DNA from: an uncultured Lachnospiraceae bacterium
Lineage (GTDB): Bacteria; Bacillota; Clostridia; Lachnospirales; Lachnospiraceae
Direction of reading: 5' to 3'
Length of the DNA stretch: 64,000 nucleotides
NCBI GenBank assembly: GCA_947565425.1
Contig: CANOFW010000007.1
Location: forward strand, 57,649-121,648
This document shows, in pieces, positions 2,453 through 25,973 of this stretch. A program made the translations under genes and the position numbers. How positions within the stretch are numbered: position 1 is the stretch's first letter; each line of letters begins with the position of its first letter. The notes under the pieces are model-generated. The model worked only from the letters and a program-made list of their open reading frames with translations. It was not told the DNA's origin and did no database searches.

Positions 2453-5400
2453 TTACTCTTTCACCTGTAAAAGCTCCAAAACCTTCTGTCTGGTCACTCC
2501 TACTGACGCCACGAATGCTCCGCAGACACAGCCCAGGAAATACAACATCCAGCAAAATGCAAGTGTGTCAATACTTCTCATAAAGAGTCCTGGACGAAAT
2601 AGCAGCAACACCCCAGTAACAAGAAGCATGCCGACAATACACAAAATCAACTGTTCAAATACCAGCATACACCTGGCACGTTTCTTCGTCACGCCAAGGA
2701 TACGTAAGAAAGCCGCTTCCTGCACCGACTGAAGGATCACAAGCCCAGGCCCAAACAAACCAATCAGCACAGCCGCCGCCACCGCAATAGGGAACAGCGA
2801 TTCCAACAAATTGCGCACGCGTTTCGTGTTTTCAAACAAATCTGTGTCAACATGATACGTCGCCTGCGGCGAGTACTCTATGCCTTTGCTTTTCATTTCC
2901 TCTAATACGCTGTTTAGCTCCTTAATCTTTTCATTGTCCGCCAGTGTAAATTCACAATAGTCCACCGGGAAAGGCTGACTGTATAGATTCTCTGCCGCCT
3001 CATTAATATTTGCGAAAATACCGGCGTTTACATCCGCATTCTCAGACTCCAGAATCCCCGCCACTTTATAAGGCTTTCCTGCCCGCTCAATGGCAAACTC
3101 AAGATCTTCCTCTGCATACACCTGTGGCATAAAAGAATACAAATCCTCTGACATTAACGTTATCTCATCCCCAGCTTTAACACCTAGTTCTTCTGCCAAC
3201 GTCTTTCCCACCAAACATACCGGACCTGTACCTTCAAAAACGGAACTGTCATATCCATCGCCATAAGCAATCGTATATGCATCGGTCAGATAACGATCAA
3301 AATCATTCGTAAACGCTATGGGACTTAATACCCCGACGCCATTCACGCGCACGCTGAATTTATTATAATAATAGATATCCTCAAGCAAATCAGATTTTGA
3401 CAAATCCATAACATAAGAGGATGTAAACATCATTGCCCGGCCTTTCACGTCAAGATCTCGGTAAGCCTCCTGATAAGAAAGCCTTGCCAACACAAACATG
3501 CCGATGCCGGCAGCCAACACAACCGTGAGAATAAGTGAAACCGCTGTTTTACCAATTCCCCGCTGCATATGGCGCAAGATATAGGAAATCACTTGTCGCA
3601 ACGCACTGTATTTCCCATGCGCCGCTCTTTGATGAGAATCATCTTCAAGTTCTAAAACAGACAGTCTTGCTATGTCCAATCCCCTGGGAACCGGCGCTGT
3701 GTCCACAATTTCCGGCGCATGTTTGTTGACGCCAAAATGTACTTGTAAAATCCCTGCCTTTTTTGCCGCATCTGTCTCTCGCGCACCCTCCTGCAATAAT
3801 TCCAGCGGAGATGTCTTCTTCATCTTCTGTAAAAAGAGCAGCGTCACCAGAGCGATAAATAACAATTCGCCAGATAAACAAAGAATTACCACACTAATTG
3901 GAAGCGCCGCGCTAAGAACATAAGAATAACCGTCCGGGGCGCTGCTATCCGACATACCGGCAAGCGTTTTTGCCGCCGTATAGGAGGCATAATAGAGCCC
4001 TGCCAGGCCGCCAACGGACATTGCAATCATCGACAGGATGCCAAACGGCAGTGTCAGCGTTCTTCCCGCCTTCCCGCCGGGCACGCCCAATGTGCGCATA
4101 ATTGCATAGGATTTCTTGTTTCTGCCAATATAGAGGTACACGGCAAGAATCAAGGCAAGCGCCGCCCCAAGCACATACAACACGGTAGTCAGAAATGACG
4201 CCAGAGAACCCGCCTCAAAATTGTCTTTCATGCCCGACCAGCCTCCGTCTGAGAAACGCAAACCCAGACTCATATCTGCTACCAGCGGTTCCGCCGCCTG
4301 CCGAAACGCCTGTATATCATGGGGGTCTTCAATAAAGACGCTGAAATCTCCCATCCGTAGCTCATGGTCTTGGGGGACTTCCACCGGCAAGAGCGAAGAC
4401 GGCACAAAGACAGACGCCGGGCCATAACTCCAATCCGTTTCATTTCTGCGTTCATCCCACTCGTTGGTAAACCGGTAAGCGCCAATGATTTCAAGATCTA
4501 CATACTCAATAATTTTCGAGATTTCCTCCGGAATCCGAAACCTTGAACCTGACATTCCCTGTCCCGCCAATAGTTTATCGCCAAGCCCTATGTGAAGTTT
4601 GTCGCCCAAAGACAACCCGTATGCCTGCAAAAGATCCTCGCTGACGACGCAGACGTCAGAGTCCCCCGCTGTCAGCGGGCGCCCCTCTGTAACAATCATC
4701 TTACGCTCATTGACATAGGGAATCGCGCGCATGTCCGAAGTATATACAATATCGTATGCCGACGTGCTTTGATTTCTCGCGTCTATCATATCTTTATACC
4801 AGGCAAACTCCTCGGTATCAAGATAATCTTCCCCCAATCCGTCTATCACACGCAAAAACTCGACATCCTGAGCCGAGTACAGATATGTGAACGAACCAAG
4901 TTCTAAAGAGGTTCCCGACCGCTCGCTGTAAGTACCCAAAACAAGGCATCTGCTTCCCTTTTTTATTTCATCAAAGTACGTCCAATCATATTCATGTCTG
5001 CGCCACTCATCGCTTCCGGCAGATATTTTCAATGGCTGGTCAGGATCAAACTGAAGTTCTCCGGCATGAACCTTGACGTCCGTAAATGTTAAATATAGAT
5101 TTCCAGAACTGTAATCTTCACTGCCCGCATAAGTGCCCTCCAGTATAAATTCTCCTTCTTCCAAGGAGCCCTCCTGGTCTATGACACGTTTATAATCCTC
5201 AATAAACCCATCCGTCGTATACCTTGTATCTGCCAGCGTAACGCCCGGCAAAGATGCAAACTTATTGATCTGCTCCTCTGACGGCCAAGGCTTTGGATCC
5301 AGTGTATAATAGCCCATCGGCGGCGTACTGTTGTCCAAAGCGGCCACGCCGTAATAGAAACTCTCCGCCTTCGCTGATTCACGCGTGGTAACTGCATAAT

Positions 5401-5509
5401 CTGTGACTCTGGAAAACAAAGCAAACGATGATGCCGCTATCAAAAGGAATGTCAGCAGCGTCTTTGCCGGAGAACGTAAGAGTGTTTTTAAAACTGTAGA
5501 TCTTCTCAT
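2453..5509 (-). CDS. FtsX-type ABC permease, paralog 1 of 3
   Basis: A 1018-residue permease with the duplicated FtsX/MacB layout: an N-terminal membrane segment (TLLTFLLIAASSFALFS), a long extracellular domain, three membrane segments at about 435-565, a further segment at about 660 (TVVLAAGIGMFVLARL), a second extracellular domain with MacB-core features (GPVCLVGKTLAEELGVKAGD), and three C-terminal segments with FLRILGVTKKRARCMLV. Such permeases normally pair with a MacB/LolD-type ATPase and move peptides or lipids, or sense antibiotics. No ATPase is encoded nearby. It is last in a tandem triplet, 34 bp after paralog 2, and shares long identical stretches with it. Confidence 0.85.
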   Translation of the reverse strand: MRRSTVLKTLLRSPAKTLLTFLLIAASSFALFSRVTDYAVTTRESAKAESFYYGVAALDNSTPPMGYYTLDPKPWPSEEQINKFASLPGVTLADTRYTTDGFIEDYKRVIDQEGSLEEGEFILEGTYAGSEDYSSGNLYLTFTDVKVHAGELQFDPDQPLKISAGSDEWRRHEYDWTYFDEIKKGSRCLVLGTYSERSGTSLELGSFTYLYSAQDVEFLRVIDGLGEDYLDTEEFAWYKDMIDARNQSTSAYDIVYTSDMRAIPYVNERKMIVTEGRPLTAGDSDVCVVSEDLLQAYGLSLGDKLHIGLGDKLLAGQGMSGSRFRIPEEISKIIEYVDLEIIGAYRFTNEWDERRNETDWSYGPASVFVPSSLLPVEVPQDHELRMGDFSVFIEDPHDIQAFRQAAEPLVADMSLGLRFSDGGWSGMKDNFEAGSLASFLTTVLYVLGAALALILAVYLYIGRNKKSYAIMRTLGVPGGKAGRTLTLPFGILSMIAMSVGGLAGLYYASYTAAKTLAGMSDSSAPDGYSYVLSAALPISVVILCLSGELLFIALVTLLFLQKMKKTSPLELLQEGARETDAAKKAGILQVHFGVNKHAPEIVDTAPVPRGLDIARLSVLELEDDSHQRAAHGKYSALRQVISYILRHMQRGIGKTAVSLILTVVLAAGIGMFVLARLSYQEAYRDLDVKGRAMMFTSSYVMDLSKSDLLEDIYYYNKFSVRVNGVGVLSPIAFTNDFDRYLTDAYTIAYGDGYDSSVFEGTGPVCLVGKTLAEELGVKAGDEITLMSEDLYSFMPQVYAEEDLEFAIERAGKPYKVAGILESENADVNAGIFANINEAAENLYSQPFPVDYCEFTLADNEKIKELNSVLEEMKSKGIEYSPQATYHVDTDLFENTKRVRNLLESLFPIAVAAAVLIGLFGPGLVILQSVQEAAFLRILGVTKKRARCMLVFEQLILCIVGMLLVTGVLLLFRPGLFMRSIDTLAFCWMLYFLGCVCGAFVASVGVTRQKVLELLQVKE

Positions 5510-5543: not shown

Positions 5544-8500
5544 CTACTCTTTCACTTGCAACAATTCTAAAACCTTATACCTGGTTACCTGCACCGCTGC
5601 CGCAAGCGCTCCGCTGATACAGCCTAGGAAATACAAGCTCCAACAAAAGGCAAGTGTCTCTGTACTTCTTACAAATAATCCCGGTTGAATCAAAGCAAGA
5701 CTCCCAGCAACAAGGACAATGCCGGCTATGCTAAGAATAATCTGTTCCAACACCAGCATACATCTGGCGCGTTTCTTTGTAACGCCCAAGATGCGCAGGA
5801 ACGCCGCTTCCTGTGCTGACTGTAAAATGACAAGCCCCGGTCCGAACACACCAATCATCACCGCCGCAGCCACGGCAATAGGGAATAGCGACTCCAACAG
5901 TTCTCGCATTCGTCTCGCGTTCTCAAGCGGTTCCGCGTCGACATGGTATGAGCTCAGCGGTGAATATCTCATGCCCACATTTTTCTTTTCTTCTAACAGA
6001 TTGTTCAGCTCCTTGAGCTTTCCATTATCTGCCAATGTAAATTCACAGTAATCGACAGTAAACGGCTGACTGTAGAGATTCTCCGAAGCCTGATTAATGG
6101 CTCCGAAAATACCTGCATTGACATCTTTATCCCGCGAATTAAGGATACCAACCACCTTGTATGGTTTTCCTGCCCGACCAATGGCAAACTCCAGCTCCTC
6201 CTCTTCATATACCTCCGGCATGAAAGAATACAAATCCTCCGAGATCAGCGTTAGCTCATCGCCCAATTTAACGCCTAGCTTCTCGGCAAGTGTCTGCCCC
6301 ACCAGACACACCGGGCCTGTGCCTTCAAAGACGGAAACATCATATCCCTCCAGATAATCAACCGTGTAATCATCTATCAGATAACGGTCAAAGTCATTGG
6401 TAAACGTAATCGGGCTTAATACGCCAACGCCGTTTACGCGCACGCTGAAGCTGCTGTAATAATAAATATCTTTCAGCAAATCCGAGTTCGACAATTCTAC
6501 GATATGAGTGGATGCAAAATTCATCGCTCTACCCTTCACATCAACCTCACGAACCGTATCCTGATAGGATAACTTCATCAGCACGAACATACCAATTCCG
6601 GCAGCCAGCACAACGGTAAGGATAAGGGAAACTGCGGTTTTGCCGTTGCCCCGTCTCATATGGCGCAAAATATAGGCGCCTACCTGCCGCGCTGCACTGT
6701 ATTTCCTATAAGCTATATATTCTGTCCCTGCTTTCGCGCCAGGTACGTCTGCTTGCTCTAAGACACCTGCTAGCCTTGCCATGTCCAGTCTGCCAGGAAG
6801 CGGCGCTGTGTCCGCAATTTCCAGCATATGCCTGTCAGTTGCCAAGGGATTTCGCAAAATTCCTGCTCTTTTTGAGGAATCTGCCCCCGTCTGCAACAAT
6901 TCCAACGGAGACGTTTTATGCATCTTCTGTACGAACACCAGCATCACAAGGGAGATAAACAACAATTCACATCCCAGACAAAATAGAACTACCCCCGGCG
7001 GAATCGCTGCATTCAATACATAAGTATATCCTTCCGGAGCCGTACTGTCCGACATGCCCGCAAGCGTTTTTGCCGCCGTGTAAGAGGCATAAAACAGGCC
7101 CACCATGCCGCCGATTGCTATTGCAGCTGCTGATAAGACACCAAATGGCAGTATAAGTAGACTTCCTGCCTTGCCTCTAGGAACCCCCAGCGTACGCATT
7201 ATTGCATAAGATTTTTTACTCCTGCCAATGTAGAGGTACACGGCAAGCAATAAAGCCAGCGCCGAGCCAAGCACATAAAAGACAGTCGTTAAAAATGACG
7301 CCAGAGAGCTCGTCTCAAAATTATCCTTCATGTTCGACCAGCCTCCGTCTGAGAAACGCAAACCTACACTCATATTTGCTGTCAACGGCTCCGCGGCTTC
7401 ACGAAAAGCTTGTATCTCATGCGGATCTTCAATAAGCACGCTGAAATCACCCATCTGTATCTCATAGTCCTTTGGCACTTCTGTCGGCAAAAGCGAAGAC
7501 GGCACAAATACGGTTGCCGGACTATAAGACCATTCTACTTCATTAAAATACCGTTCCTCTCCATCGTTGGTAAAGCGATATGCACCAATAATTTCCAGTT
7601 CGGCACCTGTAAACGAATCCGGCAATTTCTCTTTCTCCATGATCCGTGTTCCGCCTCTTCCATAATTATGACTCCGCAGTTTATCACCAAGTTCGATGTG
7701 CAATTTGTCGCCTATGGACAGGCCATACGTCTCCAAAAAAATCTCGCTTACAACACAGGCATTCGCATCTTTTGCAAGCAAAGGGCGCCCCTCAGCGATT
7801 ATCAGCTTATGTTCGTTCACATAGGGAATCGCGCGCATGTCCGAGGTATACACCATGTCATACGTCATAAAACTTTGTTTCAATGACGCAATCTTATCTT
7901 TATACCAGGAGAATTCTTCTGTTTCCAGATAATCATCTCCCAAGCCATCTATCACACGCAAACACTCCTCTGGCGTATGTTCGTAAAAATAAAGTTCAAA
8001 AGCCATACCCGTATTTTCACTGTAAACGCCTAGAACCAGAAATCTGCTTCCAACCTCTAGTTTGTCAAAAAACGATTTGGAAAACGGCTGTTTATAGTAA
8101 GCCATGGATTCTTCCCGAAAGCTTGCCGATACTTGCAGCGGATGGCGGGGATCAACCTTAATCTCTCCGGCAAGTACTTTTATATCGTTAAAATTTAAGT
8201 ATCTCTTGATATAAGGCACATCCCCAAATTCGTAGTCCTTATATCCCTCATATGTGCCCTCCAGCACAAATTCCGCCGTCTTATAATGGCTGTCCGGATC
8301 TCTGATACGCTTATAATTCTCAATAAGGCCATCTGTCATATACCTTGTATCTGCCAGCGTAACGCCAGGTAAAGACTTAAATTCTTCTATCTGTTCCTCC
8401 GACGGCCAGGGCTTAGGAGACGGATTGTATTCGCCCATAAACGGCGTACTGTTGTCCAGAGCGCCAACGCCATAATAAAAGCTTTCCGCCTTCGCTGACT

Positions 8501-8630
8501 CCCGCGTAGTTACCGCATAATCTGTGATGCGGGAAAACAATGCAAACGATGCTGCCGCTATTAACAGGAAGGTCAATAACATTTTTACCGGAGAACGCAA
8601 AAGTGTTTTTAGGGCGGTAGATTTCCTCAT
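5544..8630 (-). CDS. FtsX-type ABC permease, paralog 2 of 3
   Basis: 1028 residues with the same architecture as its two neighbours. The N-terminal block DYAVTTRESAKAESFYYGV is shared by all three copies, as is the C-terminal FLRILGVTKKRARCML. The most variable parts are the first extracellular domain (about residues 110-240) and the cytoplasmic linker after the third membrane segment (about 590-650), suggesting divergence in ligand recognition while the membrane core is conserved. It lies 27 bp downstream of paralog 3 and 34 bp upstream of paralog 1, so all three are probably one transcript. It arose by tandem gene duplication; no frameshift is visible. Confidence 0.85.
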   Translation of the reverse strand: MRKSTALKTLLRSPVKMLLTFLLIAAASFALFSRITDYAVTTRESAKAESFYYGVGALDNSTPFMGEYNPSPKPWPSEEQIEEFKSLPGVTLADTRYMTDGLIENYKRIRDPDSHYKTAEFVLEGTYEGYKDYEFGDVPYIKRYLNFNDIKVLAGEIKVDPRHPLQVSASFREESMAYYKQPFSKSFFDKLEVGSRFLVLGVYSENTGMAFELYFYEHTPEECLRVIDGLGDDYLETEEFSWYKDKIASLKQSFMTYDMVYTSDMRAIPYVNEHKLIIAEGRPLLAKDANACVVSEIFLETYGLSIGDKLHIELGDKLRSHNYGRGGTRIMEKEKLPDSFTGAELEIIGAYRFTNDGEERYFNEVEWSYSPATVFVPSSLLPTEVPKDYEIQMGDFSVLIEDPHEIQAFREAAEPLTANMSVGLRFSDGGWSNMKDNFETSSLASFLTTVFYVLGSALALLLAVYLYIGRSKKSYAIMRTLGVPRGKAGSLLILPFGVLSAAAIAIGGMVGLFYASYTAAKTLAGMSDSTAPEGYTYVLNAAIPPGVVLFCLGCELLFISLVMLVFVQKMHKTSPLELLQTGADSSKRAGILRNPLATDRHMLEIADTAPLPGRLDMARLAGVLEQADVPGAKAGTEYIAYRKYSAARQVGAYILRHMRRGNGKTAVSLILTVVLAAGIGMFVLMKLSYQDTVREVDVKGRAMNFASTHIVELSNSDLLKDIYYYSSFSVRVNGVGVLSPITFTNDFDRYLIDDYTVDYLEGYDVSVFEGTGPVCLVGQTLAEKLGVKLGDELTLISEDLYSFMPEVYEEEELEFAIGRAGKPYKVVGILNSRDKDVNAGIFGAINQASENLYSQPFTVDYCEFTLADNGKLKELNNLLEEKKNVGMRYSPLSSYHVDAEPLENARRMRELLESLFPIAVAAAVMIGVFGPGLVILQSAQEAAFLRILGVTKKRARCMLVLEQIILSIAGIVLVAGSLALIQPGLFVRSTETLAFCWSLYFLGCISGALAAAVQVTRYKVLELLQVKE

Positions 8631-8657: not shown

Positions 8658-11600
8658 CTACTCTTTCACCTGTAACAATTCTAAAACCTTATGCCTGGTT
8701 ACCTGCACCGCAGCCGCAAGCGCTCCGCAGACACAGCCCAGGAAATACAACATCCAACAAAAGGCAAGCGTCTCTGTACTTCTTACAAACAGCCCAGGAC
8801 GAAATACGGCAAGTGCCGCAGCAACAAGGACAATGCCGGCTATACTGAGGATAATCTGTTCCAACATCAGCATACACCTGGCACGTTTCTTTGTGACGCC
8901 CAAGATGCGCAGAAACGCCGCCTCCTGTGCCGACTGTAAAATGACAAGCCCCGGTCCGAACACACCAATCATCACCGCCGCGGCCACGGCAATGGGGAAT
9001 AACGACTCCAACAGGTCCCTGATACGTCTCGCGTTCTCAAGCGCTTCCGCGTCGACATGGTATGACGCCAACGGCGAATACTGTATGCTTTTATTTCTCC
9101 GTTCTTCTAAAAAGCTGTTCAACTCCTTGAGCTTTCCATTGTCCGCCAGCGTAAATTCACAGTAATCGACAGCGAACGGCTGGCTGTAGAGATTTTCCGA
9201 AGCCTGATTAATGGCTCCGTAAATACCTGCGTTGACATCTTTATCCCGCGATTTGAGGATGCCAACCACCTTATATGCTTTTCCTGCCCGCTCAATGGCA
9301 AACTCCAGCTCCTCCTCTTCATATATCTCCGGCATGAAAGAATACAAATCTTCCGAAATCATCGTTATCTCTTCACCCAATTTAACATCAAGCTTCTCGG
9401 CAAGTGTCTGCCCCACCAAACACACCGGGCCTGTACCTTCAAAAACGGAAACATCATATCCTTCCAGATAATCAACCGTGTAATCATCTATCAGATAACG
9501 GTCAAAGTCATTGGTAAACGTAATCGGGCTCAATACGCCAACGCCGTTTACACGCACACTAAACTTACTGTAATAATAAATATCCTTCAGCAAACCCGAA
9601 TTCGACAGTTCTACGATTTTATCGGAAGTAAACTGCATCGCCCTACCCTTCACGTCTGTCTCGCGCGCTGTCTCCTGATAGGAAAGCCGCGCTAAGACAA
9701 ACATACCAATTCCAGCAGCCAATACAACGGTTAGGACAAGAGACACTGCTGTTTTACCGAAGCCCCGCTTCATATGGCGCACAACGTAGGCTCCCACTTG
9801 CCGCAATGCACTGTATTTCTTAGGCACTGTATGTTCTGCCCCTGCTTGCGCACCAGGTACGTCTGATGCCCTCAAGACGTCCGAAAGTTTCTCCATGTCC
9901 ACTCCTGCAAAAGCCTGCGCCGTACCCACACGCTCCGACATATGCCAGTCGGCTGCCAAAGAGTCCTGCAATACCGCTGTTTTTTTTGTCGATCCTTCTT
10001 GTAGCAATTCCAGTGGAGATATATTCTTCATCTTTTGTAAAAAGAGCGCTGTCACCAGAGAAATAAATGCGAGCTCACAAATCAGACAAAGAACGACAAC
10101 ATCCACGGGAAGCGCAGCATCCAAAACATAGGAATATCCTTCTGGAGCAGTGCTGTCCGACATACTTGCAAGCGTCTTTGCCGCCGTGTAGGAAGCATAA
10201 TAAAGACCTGTCAAGCCACCGACTACCATAGCGACTACCGACAACATGCCAAACGGCAGTGTCAGTGAAGCTCCCGCCTTCCTGCCCGGTACGCCCAATG
10301 TACGCATAATGGCATATGATTTCTTATTCCTGCCAATATAGAGATACACGGCAAGCAGCAAAGCCAGCGCAGACCCAAGCACATACAACACAGTCGTTAA
10401 AAATGACGCCAGCGAGCCAGTCTTGAAATTATCTTTCATATCCGACCAGCCTCCGTCCGAAAAGCGCAAGCCCATACTCATATCTGCCGCCAACGGCTCC
10501 GCTGCTTCCCGAAACGCTTCTATATCATGCGGGTCCTCAATAAAGACACTATACTCATTCATCTGTAGTTCTACGTCCTCTGGAAGCTCACATGGCAACA
10601 ATGATTGCGACACAAAAACCGACGCCGGACCAAAAGACCATCCCCACTCATTCATATACCGTTCCGTTCCGTCATTCGTAAAGCGGTACGCGCCAATAAT
10701 TTCCAGTTCAACTGGCGTAAAATGTTGTTGCAAAGCGTCTACACCGACAGAACGTGTGCCTCCGATTCCTGCAATCCCTCGTAATTGATCGCCAAGTTGT
10801 ATGTGTAGTTTGTCTCCTACAGACAAGCCATAGGTCTCCAAGAAAAGCTCACTCACGACGCAGCCTTCTGAGTCGCCTGCTGTAAGAGGACGTCCCTCAG
10901 CGATTACCAGTTTGTGTTCATTCACATAAGGGATCGCACGCATGTCCGAGGTATACACCATATCGTAAGTCTGAATGCTTTGATTGATCTCCGCAATCTT
11001 GTCTTTATAGAAGGAAAACTCCTCCGTTTGCAGATAGTTGTCCCCCAACCCGTCTATCGCGCGCAGAGATTCCTCCGGGGTATAATCGTATAAATACAGT
11101 TCCAGAGCCGCCCCCGTACCTTCACTGTACATGCCAAAAACGAGATATCTGCTTCCTTCCTCCAGATTGTCAAAAAACGTCGGAGAACATGGTTGCTTGT
11201 AATAGTTATTTATGCCTTCTTCCGAAAGGTCTACCATAACCTGAAGCGGATGGCGGGGATCAAGCTTGATCTGGCCTGCATGTACTTTAACATCCTGAAA
11301 GTTTAAATGCCTCCTGAGATAAGGAGCCTCGTCGTATTCCTTATATCCCTCATACGTGCCCTCCAGTACAAAGTTGAATATATTGTTACGTTCGTCCGGG
11401 TCTAAAATACGCTTATAATCCTCTATCATACCGTCTGTACTACACCTTTTATCCGCCAGCGTAACGCCAGGCAGCGAAGAAAATTCTTCAATCTGTTCAG
11501 CAGAAGGCCAGGGCTTGGGATCTGGATAATAGTAACCGATAGGCGGCGTACTGTTGTCCAGGGCGGCAACGCCGTAATAAAAGCTTTCCGCCTTCGCTGA

Positions 11601-11732
11601 CTCCCGTGTAGTAACCGCATAGTCCGTAACACGGGAAAACAAAGCAAAAGAAGCCGCCGCTATCAGCAAAAACGTCAGTAACGTCTTTACCGGAGAACGA
11701 AATAGTGTTTTTAGTGCAGTTGTTTTTCTCAT
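8658..11732 (-). CDS. FtsX-type ABC permease, paralog 3 of 3
   Basis: 1024 residues, first gene of the FtsX triplet. The start ATG at 11732 follows a GGGAGG site and a well-formed promoter about 85 bp upstream. The N-terminal segment (TLLTFLLIAAASFALFS) anchors a large extracellular domain; central membrane segments contain LYIGRNKKSYAIMRTLGVPG, a cytoplasmic coupling-helix-like motif of FtsX permeases. That motif normally contacts an ATPase, so a partner ATPase encoded elsewhere is likely. Substrate cannot be inferred. It probably works with the adaptor and MacB-core-like protein encoded just upstream, but the intervening terminator means the two sets can be expressed separately. Confidence 0.85.
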   Translation of the reverse strand: MRKTTALKTLFRSPVKTLLTFLLIAAASFALFSRVTDYAVTTRESAKAESFYYGVAALDNSTPPIGYYYPDPKPWPSAEQIEEFSSLPGVTLADKRCSTDGMIEDYKRILDPDERNNIFNFVLEGTYEGYKEYDEAPYLRRHLNFQDVKVHAGQIKLDPRHPLQVMVDLSEEGINNYYKQPCSPTFFDNLEEGSRYLVFGMYSEGTGAALELYLYDYTPEESLRAIDGLGDNYLQTEEFSFYKDKIAEINQSIQTYDMVYTSDMRAIPYVNEHKLVIAEGRPLTAGDSEGCVVSELFLETYGLSVGDKLHIQLGDQLRGIAGIGGTRSVGVDALQQHFTPVELEIIGAYRFTNDGTERYMNEWGWSFGPASVFVSQSLLPCELPEDVELQMNEYSVFIEDPHDIEAFREAAEPLAADMSMGLRFSDGGWSDMKDNFKTGSLASFLTTVLYVLGSALALLLAVYLYIGRNKKSYAIMRTLGVPGRKAGASLTLPFGMLSVVAMVVGGLTGLYYASYTAAKTLASMSDSTAPEGYSYVLDAALPVDVVVLCLICELAFISLVTALFLQKMKNISPLELLQEGSTKKTAVLQDSLAADWHMSERVGTAQAFAGVDMEKLSDVLRASDVPGAQAGAEHTVPKKYSALRQVGAYVVRHMKRGFGKTAVSLVLTVVLAAGIGMFVLARLSYQETARETDVKGRAMQFTSDKIVELSNSGLLKDIYYYSKFSVRVNGVGVLSPITFTNDFDRYLIDDYTVDYLEGYDVSVFEGTGPVCLVGQTLAEKLDVKLGEEITMISEDLYSFMPEIYEEEELEFAIERAGKAYKVVGILKSRDKDVNAGIYGAINQASENLYSQPFAVDYCEFTLADNGKLKELNSFLEERRNKSIQYSPLASYHVDAEALENARRIRDLLESLFPIAVAAAVMIGVFGPGLVILQSAQEAAFLRILGVTKKRARCMLMLEQIILSIAGIVLVAAALAVFRPGLFVRSTETLAFCWMLYFLGCVCGALAAAVQVTRHKVLELLQVKE

Positions 11733-11815: not shown

Positions 11816-11844
11816 ATTGTAAACCAATAATCCTCAATCGTCAA
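11816..11844 (-). promoter_or_regulatory. Sigma-A promoter of the FtsX triplet
   Basis: On the minus strand TTGACG (11839-11844) and TACAAT (11816-11821) are separated by exactly 17 bp, near the sigma-A consensus. It sits between the terminator of the upstream gene and the first FtsX start, so the triplet has its own promoter. The four-box element found upstream of the lipoprotein genes is absent here. Confidence 0.75.
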
Positions 11845-15586: not shown

Positions 15587-15600
15587 GTTCCTTTCTTTAT

Positions 15601-18901: not shown

Positions 18902-21352
18902 TTACTCCGCCAGATAAAGATTTACCTTCTGCATGATGGCCGCCGCACCCGCCTCTGGGCTCTGTTCTCCTTTCAGTACCTTCTCGCCCTGTTCTACAAC
19001 CGTCTCCTTAATGACATCATCCTGTAAGCATGGGGTCGTCAACGATTCCACAAGCTCTATCATCTTCGTAATCTCTTCTTCAGGAGTTGGCTCCATGGAA
19101 TAACTAAGAGTTTCATCCAAACTAACGCCACCAATAGAGACAAGATTTTCCTTCCCCTCATACTGATGCCCATCTATCACGCTGCGAAACGCTTCTTTCT
19201 CCACCGGAAGTCCACCAGACTGTGAAATTTTCTGCGCCTCCTGGGAGAACAGGTATTTCACAAACTCCTCTGCCATTTCCGGCTGTGTACTTTTGCTGCT
19301 AATACCCACCACCATGGAAGGCACAAATACATGGTCCGCCTGCCCCGGCATAAGATCCATATTACCATCTTTTAGTTTCTTATTTATCGCCTGCTGCATT
19401 CCATAATCCATATCTCTGTATAATCCGAAATTTGTGTTGCATCTTCCGTATGCCAAATCAAAATTTCCTTTGGAAAAGTCTGCACCATTTAACACTTCCG
19501 TACCGGCTCCCTCCTGCGTAATACTCATACTTATACCGTTATCTTCCACGTCGCTGTCATATTCGCCGTAGGCATTTTTCAGCTTGCTCAAAAATTCTGT
19601 AACCTTTGATTCGTCCAGAGTCCTATCTTCCTTCTGCCAGGCTACGCCGCAGGTATACCAAAACTTTTCCACTACTGTCTTCGGCAGCATATTCATCATG
19701 GTGTCTTTGCGTTCCATAAATGTGTCAAAGTCTTCCCCCGGTGTAAAATATGCGCTGCCGGCTTGAATCATCGGTATCTTAAATCTTGCCGGAGCTGCAC
19801 ACATCTGCCCCTGCGCATCCTGATATGCATTGAGGATATTTTCAAAATAGCTTTCTCCACTTTCTTTTAACAACGGAGACAAATCTTTCAACACACCTTT
19901 CTCAATATAGTTTTCCACCGGCATTCCATCCAAGAGCAGCACGTCGGGTCCGTTACCAGCCATAATCTCCGTTGTCAACACCTTTAAAGCATCGGAAACT
20001 GTCATACCGCTTTCCTCGGAGAGCGCCGCCTGATAATTGACATAGACATCTGTATGTTCTTTCTGAAAACGGGTGATGGACTGACGAAGTTCCTTATTAT
20101 CATAGAGCGAATACATTTTCAATTCTTTATCCGGTCTCGCCGGAATGTCCGCAGAATACACATACTTTAACAAGCAAACCCCGGTTACAGAGGATGAATT
20201 CATATCATTTGCCGCTACCAGAAGGTTCTGCTCGTCTACCATCGCCAAAGCAATCGGATAGAACGCCGGCGCACCTAGAGAATTCATCGCCCCGTCAATC
20301 AACTGTTCCATCACGCTCCCACCAAATTTATAATGGTACAGACCGCCTCTGGAAAGACTGTAGATGCTCTCCCCGCCGTCCAATGTATCAACTGCACTGA
20401 AAAGGCCGTTTTCTGTACCGCTTTTGCTCAACGCTTCCACCGAAGATTTCTGCTCTCCAGTCTGCAAATCGTAACAGAGCACCTGTGTCTCATCCTGTGC
20501 AATCAGGGTATTTCCCACGCTATATATCTGAAGCATGCTCGTGGTCGAATCAAGCTCATACATATACTTCACACTGCCATCTGAGACATTTACCTGATAA
20601 ACGGTTCCATCGCCGTCCTGCACCAAAACCCAATCATTGCCAGGAAATAGCAACTTTGTAATAATATTGGACAACATTCCATTATCCGACTGTTCTTCTT
20701 CTGGCTGGCCTTCCCCTGATTGTGGATGTTCTTCTTCTGGCTGGCCTTCTCCTGCTTCCAGTTGCTGGGCATCGTCCACAGGCACTTCAACAGCCTTGCT
20801 AACCGTTGAACCGCCTTTTCCTTCCTCTTTCGGAAGTTCAAAGGACATCTTATTTGCTTTTCCCTCCTTATCTACAAGATAAAGAACCGGACGGATACCG
20901 CCGCCGCCAGATACAAGTTCATTGAATGCGCATACGATCTGCCCGCCCGGAGATATCGCAGCATAATCCATCCAGCCGTTATCTTGTTCCTGTACTTCTG
21001 CCGGCAAATCATAGACACTCTTCCAGGTCTCCCCACCGTCTGTCGACTCCCAGACGCCGGAACGACCGTTATCCCCATTTGAACCGACAATGCGCAGGCT
21101 CCCATCCTCCAACTTTTTCATATCATAAATATTGCCGAATACAACCCCGGTGTCCACTTCCTCTTCCAGAAAACGCCCCATCGCCTGTTCGCCGGCGGAC
21201 TGTGCGTCATTTCCTGAACCACCTGCTTCACCTTCATTACCAGTTCCGCCTCCATTGCCAGAGCCGCCTTTGCTGCATCCAACAAGACTCGCACAGAGTA
21301 AAGATGCTGCTACAAACGTCCCTATCACTCGTCTCCATTTTCTATTCTTCAT
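18902..21352 (-). CDS. Lipoprotein: propeller-like domain plus solute-binding domain, copy 2
   Basis: 816 residues, the longest copy. Lipobox LVGC at about 26. It has the same two-part layout as copy 1, with an Asp-box-like WESTDGGETWKSVY, then an extra acidic linker (about 185-220) rich in GEGQPEEE that is encoded by a 36-bp imperfect tandem repeat at about 20691-20757. The solute-binding half carries VTRFQKEHTDVY-like and MAGNGPDVLLLDGMPVENY blocks, nearly identical to the other copies. The region upstream (21353-21512) has its own copy of the four-box regulatory element, so copy 2, copy 1 and the permeases can be driven from here. Confidence 0.82.
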   Translation of the reverse strand: MKNRKWRRVIGTFVAASLLCASLVGCSKGGSGNGGGTGNEGEAGGSGNDAQSAGEQAMGRFLEEEVDTGVVFGNIYDMKKLEDGSLRIVGSNGDNGRSGVWESTDGGETWKSVYDLPAEVQEQDNGWMDYAAISPGGQIVCAFNELVSGGGGIRPVLYLVDKEGKANKMSFELPKEEGKGGSTVSKAVEVPVDDAQQLEAGEGQPEEEHPQSGEGQPEEEQSDNGMLSNIITKLLFPGNDWVLVQDGDGTVYQVNVSDGSVKYMYELDSTTSMLQIYSVGNTLIAQDETQVLCYDLQTGEQKSSVEALSKSGTENGLFSAVDTLDGGESIYSLSRGGLYHYKFGGSVMEQLIDGAMNSLGAPAFYPIALAMVDEQNLLVAANDMNSSSVTGVCLLKYVYSADIPARPDKELKMYSLYDNKELRQSITRFQKEHTDVYVNYQAALSEESGMTVSDALKVLTTEIMAGNGPDVLLLDGMPVENYIEKGVLKDLSPLLKESGESYFENILNAYQDAQGQMCAAPARFKIPMIQAGSAYFTPGEDFDTFMERKDTMMNMLPKTVVEKFWYTCGVAWQKEDRTLDESKVTEFLSKLKNAYGEYDSDVEDNGISMSITQEGAGTEVLNGADFSKGNFDLAYGRCNTNFGLYRDMDYGMQQAINKKLKDGNMDLMPGQADHVFVPSMVVGISSKSTQPEMAEEFVKYLFSQEAQKISQSGGLPVEKEAFRSVIDGHQYEGKENLVSIGGVSLDETLSYSMEPTPEEEITKMIELVESLTTPCLQDDVIKETVVEQGEKVLKGEQSPEAGAAAIMQKVNLYLAE

Positions 21353-21402: not shown

Positions 21403-21453
21403 TCTCTAACCCTTCTCTAATATCAGGTTAAGTTTTTAGAGATTAAATAGAGA
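21403..21453 (-). promoter_or_regulatory. Four-box element upstream of lipoprotein copy 2
   Basis: Two TCTCTAA boxes (21403-21409, 21414-21420) with 11-bp periodicity are followed after 15 bp by TTAGAGA (21436-21442) and ATAGAGA (21447-21453), again 11 bp apart and inverted to the first pair. Direct repeats one helical turn apart are typical of OmpR/PhoB-type regulator sites. The same arrangement is found at 23831-23880. Confidence 0.72.
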
Positions 21454-21512: not shown

Positions 21513-23771
21513 TTACTCCGCCAGATAAATATTTACCTTCTGCATGATGGCCGCCGCGCCCTCCTCCGGGCTCAGTTGGCCTTTCAGTACTTTTACCCCC
21601 TGTTCGACTACAACCTCCTTAATTACATCATCCTGTAAAGCTGGGGTCGTCAGCGATTCCACAAGCTCGGTCATCTTCGTAATCTCCTCTTGCGGCGTGG
21701 GCGCCTGGGTATATTGTACAGCATCCCCATTGTGGAGATGAGAGGTAATATCATTTTCATTTTCTTCGTACTCGTGCCCGTCTATCGCACGGCAAAACGA
21801 CTCTTTTTCCACCGGAAAACCACTCTGATAGGTAAATATACCCTGCGCAGCGTCAGACCGGAGCAGGTATTTGACAAATTCCTCCGCTGCCTCAGTCTGC
21901 GAACTCTTGCTGCTGATCCCCAGAACCATATAGGGAAAAAATACATGCTCCGCCTGCCCCGGCATAAGGTCTACGCATCCGTCTCCCAATCTCTCATTGA
22001 TCGCCTCTTCAAATCCAAAATCCCTATGTCCGCACAAACCGAAACTTGTATTCCAATTCCCATTTAACAACTCATAATCTCCTTCCGCCAGGTACAATAG
22101 ATTGTTTATTCCCTCCTGCTCGTAATCTTCTATACTGCTGTCATATTCGCCGTAGCCAGTTTTCAGCTTCACCAGGAATTCTGTAACCTTGGCCTCATCC
22201 AACGTCCCGTCTTCTTTCTGCCATGCCGCGCCGCAGGTATACCAGAACTTTGCTACTACGTTTGCCGGGCGCATATTCGCCATAATATCCTCGCGCTCCA
22301 TAAAATCGTTAAAATCTTCCCCCGGCGTATAGTACTTGCTGCCCGCCTGAATCATAGGGATCAGAAACCTTGAGGGAACTGCGCACAACCGCCCCTGTTT
22401 ATCCTGATAGGCATTAATGATATTCTCAAAGTAACTGCCCCCGGCGTCTTTTAACAACGGACTTAAATCTTTGAGCACTCCCTTCTCAATATACGTCTGC
22501 ACCGGCATACCGTCTAACAACAGCACGTCTGGTCCATTGCCCGCCATAATTTCCGTCGTCAATGTCTTTAAGACATCGGAAACCGTCATTCCATTATCTT
22601 GTGAAAGCGCCACCTGATAATTTACATACAACTCAGAATGCTCTTTGCGAAAACGATTGATGGCGTCGCGAATCACTTCATTTTCATAGAGAGAATACAT
22701 TTTCAGTTCCTTATCCGGTTTTGCCGGAGCATCCGCAGAATAAACGTACTTGTAAATTATAAGCTCTCCTGTACCGGAAACTCCAGAAGAAGCTACCAGA
22801 AGATTCTGCTCATCGAGCATCGTCATTGCCATCGGATAGAAATCTGGCGTTCCCAGAGAATTCATGTTTCCATCAATCAACTGTTCCATGACGCTGCCGC
22901 CAAATTTATAATGGTACAATCCCCCTTTGGAAAGGCAGTACACGCTCTCTCCGCCATCCAGCGTATCCATCCCTGTGTAATTACCATCTTTCGAGCCTCT
23001 GTCACTCAAAGTTTCCTCCGCTTTTTTCTGCTCGCCGGTCTTCATATCGTAGAGAAGCATCTGCTCCCACGATTGCACAATCAAGGTATCTCCCATCGCA
23101 AACATCTCAAAAGGCATCAGAAGCGAACCTATCTCATACTTGTATTTCACGCTGCCATCCGCTGTATTTAACTGATAAACGATTCCGTTTCTATCCTGCA
23201 CCATGATCCAGTCGTCTACCGGAAATTGCAAATCCTCCACCCGATTAGACGTTTCTTCAAACTCTTCTGCCAAATCTTTCTCTAATTCTGGAAGTTCAAA
23301 AGGTATCTTATTTGCCTTACCCTCCGCGTCAATAAGAGAAAGTACGGTATGACTGCTATCTGCTTCATATTCCTCAAATGCACATACAATCTGCCCATCC
23401 GGGGATAACGCAGCGCAACTGATATTTCCATTTGCAGACGCCCACATTTCTTCTGGAAAATCATATACTTTATCGAGCGTTTTACCACCATCTAACAGCT
23501 CCCAGACCGCATTACTCACACCGGACGAAACAACCAGACGCACACTCCCGTCTTCCATTCCCCTCATATCGTGAATATAGTCAAACTTCCCCTCTGTGCT
23601 CAACTCTTCTTCCAGAAAACGCCCCATCGCCTGATCCTCATTCCCTGATTCACCTTTGCTATCGTCCCCATTTCCTCCTGCGCCGCTTTTGCTGCATCCA
23701 ACAAGGCTTGCACAAATTAATACCGCTGCCAACAACATCCCCAGCGCCCTTTTCCACTTCCTGCATTTCAT
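21513..23771 (-). CDS. Lipoprotein: propeller-like domain plus solute-binding domain, copy 3
   Basis: About 752 residues. I chose ATG 23771 (MKCRKWKRALGM), matching the start of copy 1 and lying 9 nt after AAAGGAGG; the ATG at 23780 abuts the ribosome site. Lipobox LVGC. The propeller-like half lacks a clean Asp-box (VWELLDGGKTLDKVYDFPEE) but keeps DGGESVYCLSKGGLYHYKFG and ALSPDGQIVCAF. The solute-binding half retains FRKEHSELYVNYQVALSQ, MAGNGPDVLLLDGMPVQTY and a KVNIYLAE C-terminus. It is the most diverged copy and lies nearest the divergent two-component system, whose shared regulatory region drives it. Confidence 0.82.
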   Translation of the reverse strand: MKCRKWKRALGMLLAAVLICASLVGCSKSGAGGNGDDSKGESGNEDQAMGRFLEEELSTEGKFDYIHDMRGMEDGSVRLVVSSGVSNAVWELLDGGKTLDKVYDFPEEMWASANGNISCAALSPDGQIVCAFEEYEADSSHTVLSLIDAEGKANKIPFELPELEKDLAEEFEETSNRVEDLQFPVDDWIMVQDRNGIVYQLNTADGSVKYKYEIGSLLMPFEMFAMGDTLIVQSWEQMLLYDMKTGEQKKAEETLSDRGSKDGNYTGMDTLDGGESVYCLSKGGLYHYKFGGSVMEQLIDGNMNSLGTPDFYPMAMTMLDEQNLLVASSGVSGTGELIIYKYVYSADAPAKPDKELKMYSLYENEVIRDAINRFRKEHSELYVNYQVALSQDNGMTVSDVLKTLTTEIMAGNGPDVLLLDGMPVQTYIEKGVLKDLSPLLKDAGGSYFENIINAYQDKQGRLCAVPSRFLIPMIQAGSKYYTPGEDFNDFMEREDIMANMRPANVVAKFWYTCGAAWQKEDGTLDEAKVTEFLVKLKTGYGEYDSSIEDYEQEGINNLLYLAEGDYELLNGNWNTSFGLCGHRDFGFEEAINERLGDGCVDLMPGQAEHVFFPYMVLGISSKSSQTEAAEEFVKYLLRSDAAQGIFTYQSGFPVEKESFCRAIDGHEYEENENDITSHLHNGDAVQYTQAPTPQEEITKMTELVESLTTPALQDDVIKEVVVEQGVKVLKGQLSPEEGAAAIMQKVNIYLAE

Positions 23772-23830
23772 GATTTTCATCCTCCTTTATCCTCCCAGAT
23801 ATAACTCACAATAATAGCATACCATAAGTA

Positions 23831-23880
23831 TCTCTAACCTATCTCTAAATAACTGAGAATCTTTAGAGATTAATTAGAGA
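23831..23880. promoter_or_regulatory. Four-box element in the divergent regulator/lipoprotein promoter region
   Basis: TCTCTAA boxes at 23831-23837 and 23842-23848 (11-bp period) are followed after 14 bp by TTAGAGA boxes at 23863-23869 and 23874-23880 (11-bp period), inverted to the first pair. The arrangement almost exactly matches 21403-21453. It lies between the lipoprotein copy 3 and the response regulator genes, so it can control both directions. Downstream on the plus strand come two hairpin-forming stretches (23888-23912 and about 23935-23960) in the leader of the regulator gene. Confidence 0.75.
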
Positions 23881-24016
23881 TATATATGGTAAAATATCGT
23901 TAGATATTTTACGCGCCGCAGTGCGCATACACTACCATGTCATTGCGTAGCAATTCATGGTAAAATATAATTATTATTTTGACCGTTTAAATTACAGAGA
24001 AAGGCTCGTTAAAACT

Positions 24017-24697
24017 ATGCGAATATTAGTGATTGAAGACGATAAATCCCTTGCCGAGACACTCCGCTTCCAATTAGAACGCAGCGGCTTTGAGACAGAT
24101 GTATGCCACGATGGGGAAGAGGGGCTGCACTTCATCGAACAGCAGGCGCACGATTTAATTCTGCTTGACCGCATGCTCCCCATACTGGACGGTATTTCTG
24201 TCCTTAAAATTACCCGCGAGAAAAATATTCCTACGCCCATTATTTTTGTCACTGCCCTTGGCGCTTTGAACGATAAAGTTACCGGGCTTGACTGCGGCGC
24301 AGATGATTATCTGGTAAAACCGTTTGACTATGAGGAATTACTTGCCAGAATCCGCTGCATCTTACGGAGGCCACCCAAATGGGAAGGCGCCAAACCTTTA
24401 GAATATGGAGATCTCACTTTCGATATCGAACAAAAGAAACTATATTGCAAAGACCTCTCCTGCTCTCTCTCTGCACGGGAGGGTGATTTGCTGGAATTCT
24501 TTCTGCGCAATCCAAATCAAACGATTCCCCGTCTTTCTCTACTCTCAAAAGTCTGGGGACCGGACGCCGACGTTGAGGAGGGCAATCTGGATAATTATAT
24601 TTATTTCCTGCGCCGGCGTCTCAAAAGTGTAGGAAGCGCAGTATCATTAAAAACTGTGCGGGGCGTAGGGTATCAATTGGAGGTTGGACATGTTTAA
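24017..24697 (+). CDS. OmpR/PhoB-family response regulator
   Basis: 226 residues from ATG 24017 (MRILVIEDDKSLAETLRF). The receiver domain has the acidic pocket (EDD), phospho-acceptor Asp51 (LILLDRMLP), Thr/Ala at 79-80 and Lys101. The C-terminal winged helix contains LSKVWGPDADVEEGNLDNYI and RRRLKS...LKTVRGVGYQL, typical of OmpR-type DNA-binding domains. I chose the internal ATG over an upstream in-frame start at 23957 because family members begin MRILVIED. It overlaps its kinase by 8 nt. By position it should control the lipoprotein/permease cluster through the 11-bp-spaced boxes. Confidence 0.92.
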   Translation: MRILVIEDDKSLAETLRFQLERSGFETDVCHDGEEGLHFIEQQAHDLILLDRMLPILDGISVLKITREKNIPTPIIFVTALGALNDKVTGLDCGADDYLVKPFDYEELLARIRCILRRPPKWEGAKPLEYGDLTFDIEQKKLYCKDLSCSLSAREGDLLEFFLRNPNQTIPRLSLLSKVWGPDADVEEGNLDNYIYFLRRRLKSVGSAVSLKTVRGVGYQLEVGHV

Positions 24698-25973
24698 AAA
24701 GCTTCATATCAGGCTCACGCTTCTATGCACGGTCGTGAGCAGTTTCATTCTCGTTTTCATGTCCTTTGCCTGTCTCTCCTTTCAGGAAGCGGAATCGAGA
24801 GAGCGCTATTTTTCTGATTTTCAGGTGAATGTCAATATGCTCATCAATTATCTGGAAAGCCAGTCTGTCATTTCCCATAACTGGCTCTCACAGTTCCATA
24901 CGGACACCCGCTTTGAGATGGATATTCTGGATAACGGCAACCGGCTGGCATTCGGGAACCTCAAACCGCTCCGTTCTAAGGAACCTATCTTTGAATTGAT
25001 ACGAGAAACGGCTGAGAAGGAATATCTGGTCTATGAGAAATCCATAACACCCCAGTCCATACTTTCCACACATGTGGAATTTGAAATTACCGCAGAAGAT
25101 ATACCTTATTATGCCGCCGTGATTATGCTGCCCAAAAATAAAGGTGTGTTAAACATTGCGATCCTCCATGCTCAAGAAGACTTACAAAAGACAATTACCA
25201 CCCAGCGGCTGTATTTTGCCGTCGCGGATATCGCCGGAATTCTGCTTCTCGCCATCTTTTTTTGGTTCTTTACCTGGCGTATGATTCTGCCTTTGATAGA
25301 AAACCGCAAAAAGCAGACGGAATTTATCGCTTCCGCCTCCCACGAGCTGCGTTCTCCGCTGACCGTCATGCTCTCCGCCCTCTCCGCCATGAAACATGCC
25401 TCTCCGACGGACGCCGAACGCTTCTCCCAGACGATTGCCCTGGAAGGGAAACGCATGAGTCGCCTGATCGACGATATGCTGGCTCTTTCAAGCGCTGACA
25501 GCGCGCATTTCACCGTGCGCAAATCCGCTGTGGAACTCGACACTCTGCTGCTGTCCGCTTATGAGAAATTTGAAGCCCTGGCGAAAGATAAAAATATTTC
25601 ACTGAAGATTAATCTACCAGATGAATCCGTTCCCCCCTGTCAGTGTGACAAAGAACGCATCGAACAGGTGCTATCCATTTTACTGGATAACGCTTTGAGC
25701 TACACGCCCATAGGCGGCGCCATCCGTCTGTCGCTGCAAGCATCTACGGACAAGTTTACCCTCCGGGTTGCAGATAATGGCATTGGTATTCCTGACACCG
25801 AAAAAAAAGCAATATTCGACCGCTTTTACAGATGCGACAAATCGCACAAGGACAAGGAACACTTTGGGCTCGGCCTGTGCATCGCCTGGGAAATCGTGCA
25901 CATGCATAAGGGAAAATTATGGGTGGAAGATACTCCCGGGGGAGGAGCGACGTTTGTGATGGTATTGAGATAA
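24690..25973 (+). CDS. Two-component sensor histidine kinase
   Basis: About 427 residues from ATG 24690, with GGAGG 6 nt upstream. An N-terminal membrane segment (about 8-30) is followed by an extracellular sensor of about 130 residues, a second segment (about 168-190, ILLLAIFFWFFTWRMIL), a HisKA domain with the phospho-acceptor His in FIASASHELRSPLTVML (about residue 218), and a HATPase domain with N box (LDNALSYTP), DNGIGIPDTEK, FGLGLCIA and GGGATF. The family phosphorylates the partner regulator after sensing an extracellular signal. It is translationally coupled to the regulator gene and diverges from the lipoprotein cluster. Confidence 0.92.
   Translation: MFKKLHIRLTLLCTVVSSFILVFMSFACLSFQEAESRERYFSDFQVNVNMLINYLESQSVISHNWLSQFHTDTRFEMDILDNGNRLAFGNLKPLRSKEPIFELIRETAEKEYLVYEKSITPQSILSTHVEFEITAEDIPYYAAVIMLPKNKGVLNIAILHAQEDLQKTITTQRLYFAVADIAGILLLAIFFWFFTWRMILPLIENRKKQTEFIASASHELRSPLTVMLSALSAMKHASPTDAERFSQTIALEGKRMSRLIDDMLALSSADSAHFTVRKSAVELDTLLLSAYEKFEALAKDKNISLKINLPDESVPPCQCDKERIEQVLSILLDNALSYTPIGGAIRLSLQASTDKFTLRVADNGIGIPDTEKKAIFDRFYRCDKSHKDKEHFGLGLCIAWEIVHMHKGKLWVEDTPGGGATFVMVLR

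What the first reader, a model, noticed from the sequence alone, without database searches (positions are those of the whole stretch)
2453..25973. Composite locus: two-component system, three propeller-SBP lipoproteins, MalFG permeases, MacA-like adaptor and FtsX triplet, with no ATPase
Seen directly: a regulator pair diverges from three lipoproteins, two canonical importer permeases with EAA loops, a HlyD/MacA-like adaptor, a MacB-core-like protein, a terminator, a new promoter and three 1020-residue FtsX permeases. No gene in this 23-kb stretch encodes an ABC ATPase. Sugar importers and MacAB/FtsX exporters are normally separate systems. The layout suggests a single envelope function, such as sensing or processing an extracellular polymer, with borrowed ATPases. 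It is the best candidate here for an undescribed system.
Basis: partly seen in the sequence, partly recalled or inferred. Interest (0 to 1): 0.75.

Follow-up and report, generated by a model that had tools for sequence, protein, structure and literature searches.

The report
ATPase-less importer with MacA/MacB-like partners
This stretch joins two neighbouring gene sets: a widespread and apparently undescribed sugar-type importer that carries two efflux-pump-like partner proteins and probably borrows its motor from elsewhere in the genome, and beside it a separate array of giant membrane proteins that has no motor gene of its own here.

Summary
In detail: the listed genes are present and no ABC ATPase match lies in the window or within 12.7 kb before it. 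The single-composite reading holds only in part.

Unit A (SBP-malF-malG-macA-"mcore", divergent OmpR-type RR/HK) is a conserved module of Clostridia: of 80 named malF relatives, 76 carry malG and 76 macA. mcore folds like MacB/YknZ/LolE subunits but has no ATPase domain, FtsX-family match or coupling motif. Five relatives carry a MalK-type ATPase directly downstream; this genome has an unlinked MsmX-like ATPase. A TTAGAG-N5-TTAGAG repeat marks the RR/SBP promoters: 35 of 53 at up to 1 mismatch, 0.175 expected.

Unit B (ftsX x3 plus blaI-blaR, just outside the coordinates) is a genus-level family, often seen as blaI-blaR-ftsX-ABC. It was found behind unit A in 4 of 29 genus genomes, with its own promoter-like site and no ATPase gene.

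Best reading: a CUT1-type importer powered in trans, with a MacA-like adaptor and an ATPase-free MacB-like partner, beside a separate BlaRI-FtsX unit. Transport, ligand and the role of the adaptor pair are inferred.

The parts
24684..25973 (+). HK: sensor histidine kinase (HisKA + HATPase_c)
   Evidence: Pfam; found in 53 of 80 named loci
23957..24697 (+). RR: OmpR-type response regulator
   Evidence: Response_reg + Trans_reg_C; found in 53 of 80 named loci
23863..23879 (+). predicted operator TTAGAG-N5-TTAGAG facing RR, exact
   Evidence: motif enrichment
23832..23848 (-). predicted operator TTAGAG-N5-TTAGAG facing sbp1, exact
21513..23780 (-). sbp1: lipoprotein, N-terminal beta-rich (propeller-like) domain + CUT1-type SBP domain
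   Evidence: SBP_bac_1; alignment A3
21436..21452 (+). operator-like site, 1 mismatch, between sbp1 and sbp2
21404..21420 (-). predicted operator TTAGAG-N5-TTAGAG facing sbp2, exact
18902..21352 (-). sbp2: propeller-SBP lipoprotein
   Evidence: SBP_bac_1; 72.5% identical to sbp3
16551..18875 (-). sbp3: propeller-SBP lipoprotein; modelled
   Evidence: AlphaFold2 mean pLDDT 86.9; PDB matches to CUT1 SBPs and one to a Gbeta propeller
15601..16488 (-). malF-like permease with EAA loop
   Evidence: BPD_transp_1; family alignment A1
14675..15604 (-). malG-like permease with EAA loop
   Evidence: BPD_transp_1; NCBIfam UgpE 77.3 bits, below its cut-off
13057..14634 (-). MacA/HlyD-like adaptor with a low-complexity insert in the hairpin region
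   Evidence: RND_mfp over cut-off; profile matches MacA structures 5nik, 3fpp and 4dk0
11975..13054 (-). mcore: MacB-like membrane subunit without ATPase domain or coupling motif
   Evidence: AlphaFold2 mean pLDDT 91.5; Foldseek to MacB superfamily
11892..11939 (-). terminator hairpin between unit A and unit B
11816..11844 (-). promoter-like site of the FtsX array, TTGACG-17-TACAAT
8658..11732 (-). ftsX1 (unit B), 1024 aa, two halves each with the coupling motif
5544..8630 (-). ftsX2 (unit B), 1028 aa
2453..5509 (-). ftsX3 (unit B), 1018 aa
2359..2387 (-). promoter-like site of blaI, TTGACT-17-TATACT
1839..2264 (-). blaI-like repressor (unit B)
   Evidence: Penicillinase_R
754..1836 (-). BlaR1-like M56 membrane protein (unit B)
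   Evidence: Peptidase_M56

Best explanation
The locus is two adjacent systems. Unit A is an importer of the CUT1 (MalFG/UgpAE) type. Propeller-SBP lipoproteins catch an extracellular ligand, probably a glycan or glycoconjugate (inferred from fold), and hand it to MalF-MalG, which an unlinked MsmX/MsmK-type ATPase powers in trans (inferred; supported by a MalK-type ATPase gene linked to the module in five relatives). The MacA-like adaptor and the ATPase-free MacB-like protein form an outer-face assembly on or beside MalFG, most likely a scaffold or conduit in the wall zone that holds the propeller-SBPs or passes their loading state to the histidine kinase (inferred). An OmpR-type RR controls the operon and itself through 11-bp-period TTAGAG repeats (predicted from conservation, not tested). 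Unit B, blaI-blaR-ftsX, is a separate genus-level stress or efflux unit that lies behind unit A in one subclade and has no ATPase gene there (lost or never gained); it may use the ATPase of a paralogous unit.
For: Unit A kept together: macA beside malF in 29 of 31 fetched relative loci; malG and macA each in 76 of 80 named loci; no family of unlabelled neighbours in more than 6 loci. EAA loops: malF 97 of 109, malG 101 of 106 by a loose pattern. ATPase: in five loci an ABC gene starts at the end of the module, with TOBE_2 in 5 of 5 and OB_MalK in 4 of 5. This genome has a MalK-type ATPase without a permease beside it that matches MsmX 6yir at 477 bits. mcore: all 15 PDB matches at E <= 0.001 are MacB-superfamily; MacB_PCD in 21 of 47 members, FtsX in none; coupling motif in 0 of 47 against both halves of all three window FtsX proteins; in the window's model about 3 residues separate TM2 and TM3, where MacB has its major coupling helix (PMC5985334, passages seen). 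Operator: 35 of 53 promoter regions at up to 1 mismatch, Markov mean 0.175 and maximum 2, only at 11-bp spacing; held-out halves 15-20 of 27; four of the five exact sites in the genome lie in the two unit A copies. Unit B: of 18 chosen non-composite FtsX loci, 12 have an ABC gene next door and 13 blaI and/or blaR; of the 4 composite loci, 0 and 4.
Against: No transport, binding or expression data exist. The trans ATPase is unproven: 2 of 28 genomes with macA hits have no OB_MalK match (G001, 74% complete; G029, 93%), and genomes without the module were not compared. L151 also carries exporter-type ABC genes next door, one MacB-like. In 21 of 80 named loci macA is followed by no recognised mcore although the contig goes on, so mcore is not essential. 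The short TM2-TM3 linker is not general: several of the 47 members have long linkers and 6 have almost no residues aligned there; Foldseek TM-scores for mcore are low (0.30-0.46 by query). At up to 2 mismatches the repeat is not enriched in the window (8 found, 5.82 expected) or in the genome (95 and 91 sites against 306 and 278 for the backward control); only the near-exact sites stand out. The order A-then-B is kept in four species.
Confidence: 0.62

Rival explanations
1. One composite machine: importer, adaptor, MacB-like protein and FtsX triplet act together in sensing or processing an extracellular polymer.
For: The order sbp-malF-malG-macA-mcore-ftsX(2-3)-blaI-blaR recurs in L239, L240 and L241, each without the ABC gene that 12 of 18 other FtsX loci have.
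Against: Of 26 genus genomes with a close malF orthologue (74% or more), 13 have no FtsX match and 9 have it on other contigs (I did not fetch those 22 malF loci, and assemblies are fragmented). The FtsX array has its own promoter-like site in the window and similar sequences by eye in the three others, and no module operator.
Confidence: 0.12
2. Unit A is a sensor rather than a nutrient importer: MalFG with MacA/mcore works as a co-receptor that tells the histidine kinase about ligand-loaded SBP, with little net uptake, much as BceAB serves BceS (recalled).
For: The RR/HK pair travels with the module (53 of 80), near-exact operator sites are almost private to it, and no unlabelled neighbour family recurs beside it in more than 6 loci.
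Against: EAA loops are intact in most members and a MalK-type ATPase is linked in five loci, which points to active transport.
Confidence: 0.2
3. MacA and mcore form a MacAB-like exporter driven by a YknY/LolD-type ATPase in trans, with the importer as a separate partner in one operon.
For: The mcore fold and the MacA profile are those of MacAB-type systems; L151 has a MacB-like ABC gene two genes after its module.
Against: mcore lacks the coupling motif (0 of 47) and in the window's model the TM2-TM3 linker is about 3 residues. macA stands without a recognised mcore in 21 of 80 loci. In four of the five ATPase-linked loci only a MalK-type gene is adjacent.
Confidence: 0.1
4. An ordinary CUT1 sugar importer whose other neighbours are incidental.
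For: CUT1 importers that lack their own ATPase gene and use a shared one are known in Firmicutes (PMC7658222, passages seen).
Against: macA was found in 76 of 80 named malF loci from many genera.
Confidence: 0.05

Closest known systems
CUT1 ABC importers with a shared ATPase (MsmX/MsmK systems)
   Same: SBP_bac_1 lipoproteins, two BPD_transp_1 permeases with EAA loops, no local ATPase, an MsmX-like ATPase elsewhere in the genome
   Different: SBP fused to an N-terminal propeller-like domain; MacA-like and ATPase-free MacB-like partners; OmpR-type two-component genes
MacAB / YknXYZ / S. pneumoniae MacAB (type VII ABC with adaptor)
   Same: MacA-family adaptor next to a protein with the MacB membrane-plus-extracytoplasmic fold
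   Different: No ATPase domain or ATPase gene for the MacB-like protein here, no coupling motif, and MalFG-type permeases beside it
FtsX-family/ABC units with BlaI/BlaR-like genes (unit B)
   Same: FtsX-family permeases with blaI/blaR; cognate ABC gene in 12 of 18 other loci looked at
   Different: Three tandem permeases of about 1020 residues and no ATPase gene in the composite; matches only in this genus at E <= 1e-40

Membership tests
CUT1 (type I) ABC importer | SBP of the SBP_bac_1 family, lipid-anchored in a monoderm | tested here: met
   sbp1-3 over the Pfam cut-off; PDB fold matches to CbpC, YesO and MalE-type SBPs for sbp3; lipobox read directly
CUT1 (type I) ABC importer | Two BPD_transp_1 permeases with EAA loops | tested here: met
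CUT1 (type I) ABC importer | MalK-type ATPase | tested here: inconclusive
   Absent from this locus; linked in five relatives; unlinked candidate in the genome; interaction untested
CUT1 (type I) ABC importer | ATP-driven uptake of a carbohydrate | not testable with these tools
   Needs uptake or binding assays
MacAB-type (type VII) system | MacA-family adaptor | tested here: met
   RND_mfp over cut-off; profile hits MacA structures
MacAB-type (type VII) system | MacB membrane and extracytoplasmic fold | tested here: met
   15 of 15 PDB matches at E <= 0.001, with low TM-scores; MacB_PCD in 21 of 47 members, the window's own below cut-off
MacAB-type (type VII) system | Nucleotide-binding domain, fused or encoded next door | tested here: not met
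   None in mcore or in this locus; in four of five ATPase-linked relatives the adjacent gene is MalK-type only
MacAB-type (type VII) system | Coupling helix between TM2 and TM3 | tested here: not met
   Motif 0 of 47; about 3-residue linker in the window's model; location of the helix from PMC5985334 (passages). Some relatives have longer linkers
FtsX/ABC unit with BlaI/BlaR (unit B) | FtsX domains with coupling motif | tested here: met
   PF02687 over cut-off in all three; motif in both halves
FtsX/ABC unit with BlaI/BlaR (unit B) | Cognate ABC gene adjacent | tested here: not met
   0 of 4 composite loci, 12 of 18 other loci

The most novel reading that the evidence does not exclude
Unit A is a trans-wall uptake machine: a MacA-like ring, held by an ATPase-free relative of MacB, stands on a MalFG importer and guides polymer fragments caught by propeller-SBPs down to the permease. 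An efflux-pump adaptor would thus serve import, and a MacB-type subunit would be driven, if at all, by the importer's ATPase cycle.
Probability: 0.22. Interest if true: 0.85.

Novelty: new variant of a known kind. Interest (0 to 1): 0.6.

Why it matters
If it works as an importer, adaptor proteins serve uptake as well as export, and the question why monoderm bacteria keep MacA-like proteins gains a testable case. The repeat motif gives a handle on its regulon, and the five ATPase-linked relatives name the motor type to test.

Tried and rejected
FtsX as part of the same ancestral machine: rejected (no match at E <= 1e-40 in 149 other family genomes; composite found in 4 of 29 genus genomes). 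A hidden ATPase just outside: the nearest ABC match is 12.7 kb before the window and on the other strand. A shared regulon: no TTAGAG repeat at up to 1 mismatch at ftsX1 or at the unlinked ATPase. A BlaI operator: the dyad seen before the window's blaI was in 1 of 15 blaI and 0 of 32 ftsX upstream regions; a search for recurrent inverted repeats found none in more than 3 of 44 regions. Further recurrent neighbours of unit A: none in more than 6 loci. One clade for the linked ATPases: the tree puts them in two groups on long branches, and treekit warns that such joins may be false. A stricter EAA pattern matched only 4 of 109 malF and 57 of 106 malG; its spacing was badly set, so I used the looser one and the alignment. 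The C15 exact repeat was only looked at by eye and seems to lie at a gene end. Eight paper searches listed no paper describing the module, judged from titles and abstract starts; the library lacks most subscription journals, so this is weak evidence of novelty.

Rows dropped or doubled: one search left out four own-genome loci without the module (L079, L081, L082, L083), L076 and the window. The 18 regions were picked from the stronger FtsX places, not drawn at random; three of them are composites. The tree used 28 of the 30 MalK-type loci L181-L210 (L182 and L201 failed the motif filter). L075 has a MalK-type ATPase 1.4 kb upstream on the same strand and was not counted as linked.
Full report
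What is there. The window is G000:C7:57649-121648 of a 3.36-Mb genome in 65 contigs, 92.9% complete. On the minus strand, reading downstream: sbp1, sbp2, sbp3, malF, malG, macA, mcore, then a 242-nt gap, ftsX1, ftsX2, ftsX3, blaI and blaR; RR and HK diverge on the plus strand. Gaps inside the first seven genes are -4 to 160 nt; the 242-nt gap holds a terminator hairpin (z -4.6) and a promoter-like site (the scan's total, 20 against 17.4 in shuffles, is not above chance). The PF00005 search lists no ABC match on C7 beyond base 44919, so the 23-kb stretch has none.

Unit A is a conserved module. A MacA search hit 37 of 150 family genomes, own included, at E <= 1e-10. I fetched 31 loci from these relatives; malF lies beside macA in 29. 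The exceptions are L076 (a macA fragment without permeases) and L062 (contig end). Of these 80, malG was found in 76, macA in 76, an SBP in 72, RR in 53, HK in 53 and mcore in 52; some misses are contig ends or ORF-picking losses. Among unlabelled neighbours no family recurs in more than 6 loci. Pairwise distances of module proteins correlate (rho 0.46-0.77), which shared descent of the genomes alone could also give.

The ATPase. Of 111 module loci examined (three of them twice), 11 have an ABC gene in or within 1.5 kb of the block; of the 85 with complete flanks, 9. In five (L149 Sedimentibacter, L151 a MAG labelled Coriobacteriia, L160 a Firmicutes MAG, L166 Negativibacillus, L175 Hungatella hathewayi) a 366-387-residue ABC protein starts at the end of the module. 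All five have TOBE_2 and four have OB_MalK: the MalK type. L151 is a complication, since exporter-type ABC genes follow, one MacB-like. In L138 a 218-residue ABC gene sits inside the module. The window's genome has two OB_MalK ATPases. One lies with its own permeases beside genes that look like sucrose or fructan use (C16; my reading of the sequences). The other (C4:24775-25887) has no permease beside it, lies near genes that read as arginine synthesis (by eye), and matches B. subtilis MsmX (6yir) at 477 bits; its best PDB match is 7x0q at 533. Multitask ATPases that serve several importers are known in Firmicutes (PMC7658222, passages seen). OB_MalK ATPases occur in 26 of 28 genomes with macA hits; the exceptions are G001 (74% complete) and G029 (93%). 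I did not test genomes without the module, so this is only permissive. In the tree the linked ATPases fall in two groups (L151, L166, L175; and L149, L160) with long branches; the 28 other MalK-type rows from module genomes, whose context I did not check, form with the window genome's unlinked one a set with support 92/91.

mcore. The AlphaFold2 model has mean pLDDT 91.5. All 15 PDB matches at E <= 0.001 are MacB-superfamily: MacB, S. pneumoniae 5xu1, YknZ, LolE/LolCDE, YbbAP, BceB. TM-scores over the whole query are low (0.30-0.46), so the match is to domain folds rather than one rigid shape. Pfam MacB_PCD is found in 21 of 47 members at E <= 0.001 and FtsX in none. The [LIMV]RxLG motif, which by my knowledge marks the cytoplasmic coupling region of FtsX proteins, is in both halves of each window FtsX and in 0 of 47 mcore proteins. 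In the window's model about three residues join TM2 and TM3, where MacB has its major coupling helix (PMC5985334, passages seen). Not all relatives are alike: several have long linkers there and 6 of 47 (L103, L109, L126, L146, L161, L176) have almost no residues aligned in that region. In 21 of 80 loci macA is followed by no recognised mcore although the contig goes on, so macA with malFG is the core partnership.

The SBPs. sbp3 models at mean pLDDT 86.9: a beta-rich N-terminal domain of about 330 residues and a C-terminal SBP domain. Foldseek matches the latter to CUT1 SBPs (best CbpC, 7x0o) and also lists a Gbeta propeller (8iq4_B, E 2.9e-11). Asp-box-like motifs are visible in the sequences (motif name recalled).

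The regulator. Divergent RR-SBP promoter regions could be cut from 53 loci (one locus twice; own genome twice, for its two copies). They carry the direct repeat TTAGAG-N5-TTAGAG: exact in 25 of 53, within one mismatch in 35 (Markov control mean 0.175, maximum 2), within two in 48 (mean 2.95), and at one mismatch in 0-3 of 53 for the five other spacings tried. The motif was found on the same set; in five random splits the top motif from 26 regions was the same and hit 15-20 of the other 27. The window has one exact site facing RR, one facing sbp1 and one facing sbp2. The genome has five exact sites: these three, one at the second unit A copy on C28, and one at C15. At two mismatches the pattern is not enriched: 8 sites in the window against 5.82 expected, and fewer in the genome than its backward control. 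No site at up to one mismatch lies at ftsX1 or at the unlinked ATPase.

Unit B. Among 150 family genomes the 1020-residue FtsX family was matched at E <= 1e-40 only in the window's genome, and in 13 of 29 genus genomes. I looked at 18 FtsX loci outside the composite (L079, L083, L238, L242-L256; chosen, not random): 12 have an ABC gene next door and 13 have blaI and/or blaR nearby. On C46 of this genome the M56 domain and FtsX are one 1270-residue protein, followed by an ABC gene. The composite order recurs in G173, G168 and G167 (L239-L241), each without an ABC gene. malF is matched in 28 of 29 genus genomes, 26 of them with an orthologue of 74% identity or more; 13 of these 26 have no FtsX match and in 9 FtsX and that malF lie on different contigs, a weak test in fragmented assemblies. 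So the linkage is real in a subclade of four species and was not seen elsewhere.

How it probably works. Shown by sequence or model: gene linkage, folds, EAA loops, conservation of the repeat, the MalK type of the linked ATPases. Inferred: import of a glycan-like ligand, power from the unlinked ATPase, an outer-face MacA/mcore assembly, RR binding to the repeats. The sensor reading remains a serious rival at about 0.2.

Novelty. Eight paper searches listed nothing describing the module, in a library lacking most subscription journals. I rate it a new variant of a known kind: a CUT1-type importer with MacA-like and ATPase-free MacB-like partners.

Noticed in passing
L238:6253-10065 (own genome C46:9252-13064): One 1270-residue protein holds a BlaR1-type M56 domain and the FtsX permease, followed by an ABC ATPase gene. 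FtsX frames of about 1317 residues occur in G161, G165, G173 and G177, not checked for the fusion. It suggests a functional tie between BlaR-like sensing and this FtsX family.
   Followed up: partly
L078 (own genome C28:13000-32999): A second unit A copy (sbp-malF-malG-macA with RR/HK and an exact TTAGAG repeat) without a recognised mcore, with weakly matching blaR/blaI-like genes just past the HK gene.
   Followed up: partly
L138:9402-10058: A 218-residue ABC ATPase gene sits inside unit A between the SBP and malF genes; an M56/BlaR-like gene is also nearby.
   Followed up: no
L083 (own genome C12:1583-4755): A further copy of the giant FtsX gene that appears broken into two reading frames.
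   Followed up: no
13057-14634 and relatives: The MacA-like proteins vary widely in length (408 to 800 residues among 72 that passed a filter of more than 400); in the window a Gly/Ser/Glu-rich insert interrupts the hairpin region.
   Followed up: partly
L085, L086, L088, L093, L094, L096: A distant subset of module MalF proteins has EVA..E(G/S/A)A in place of EAA..DGA in the ATPase-contact loop.
   Followed up: no
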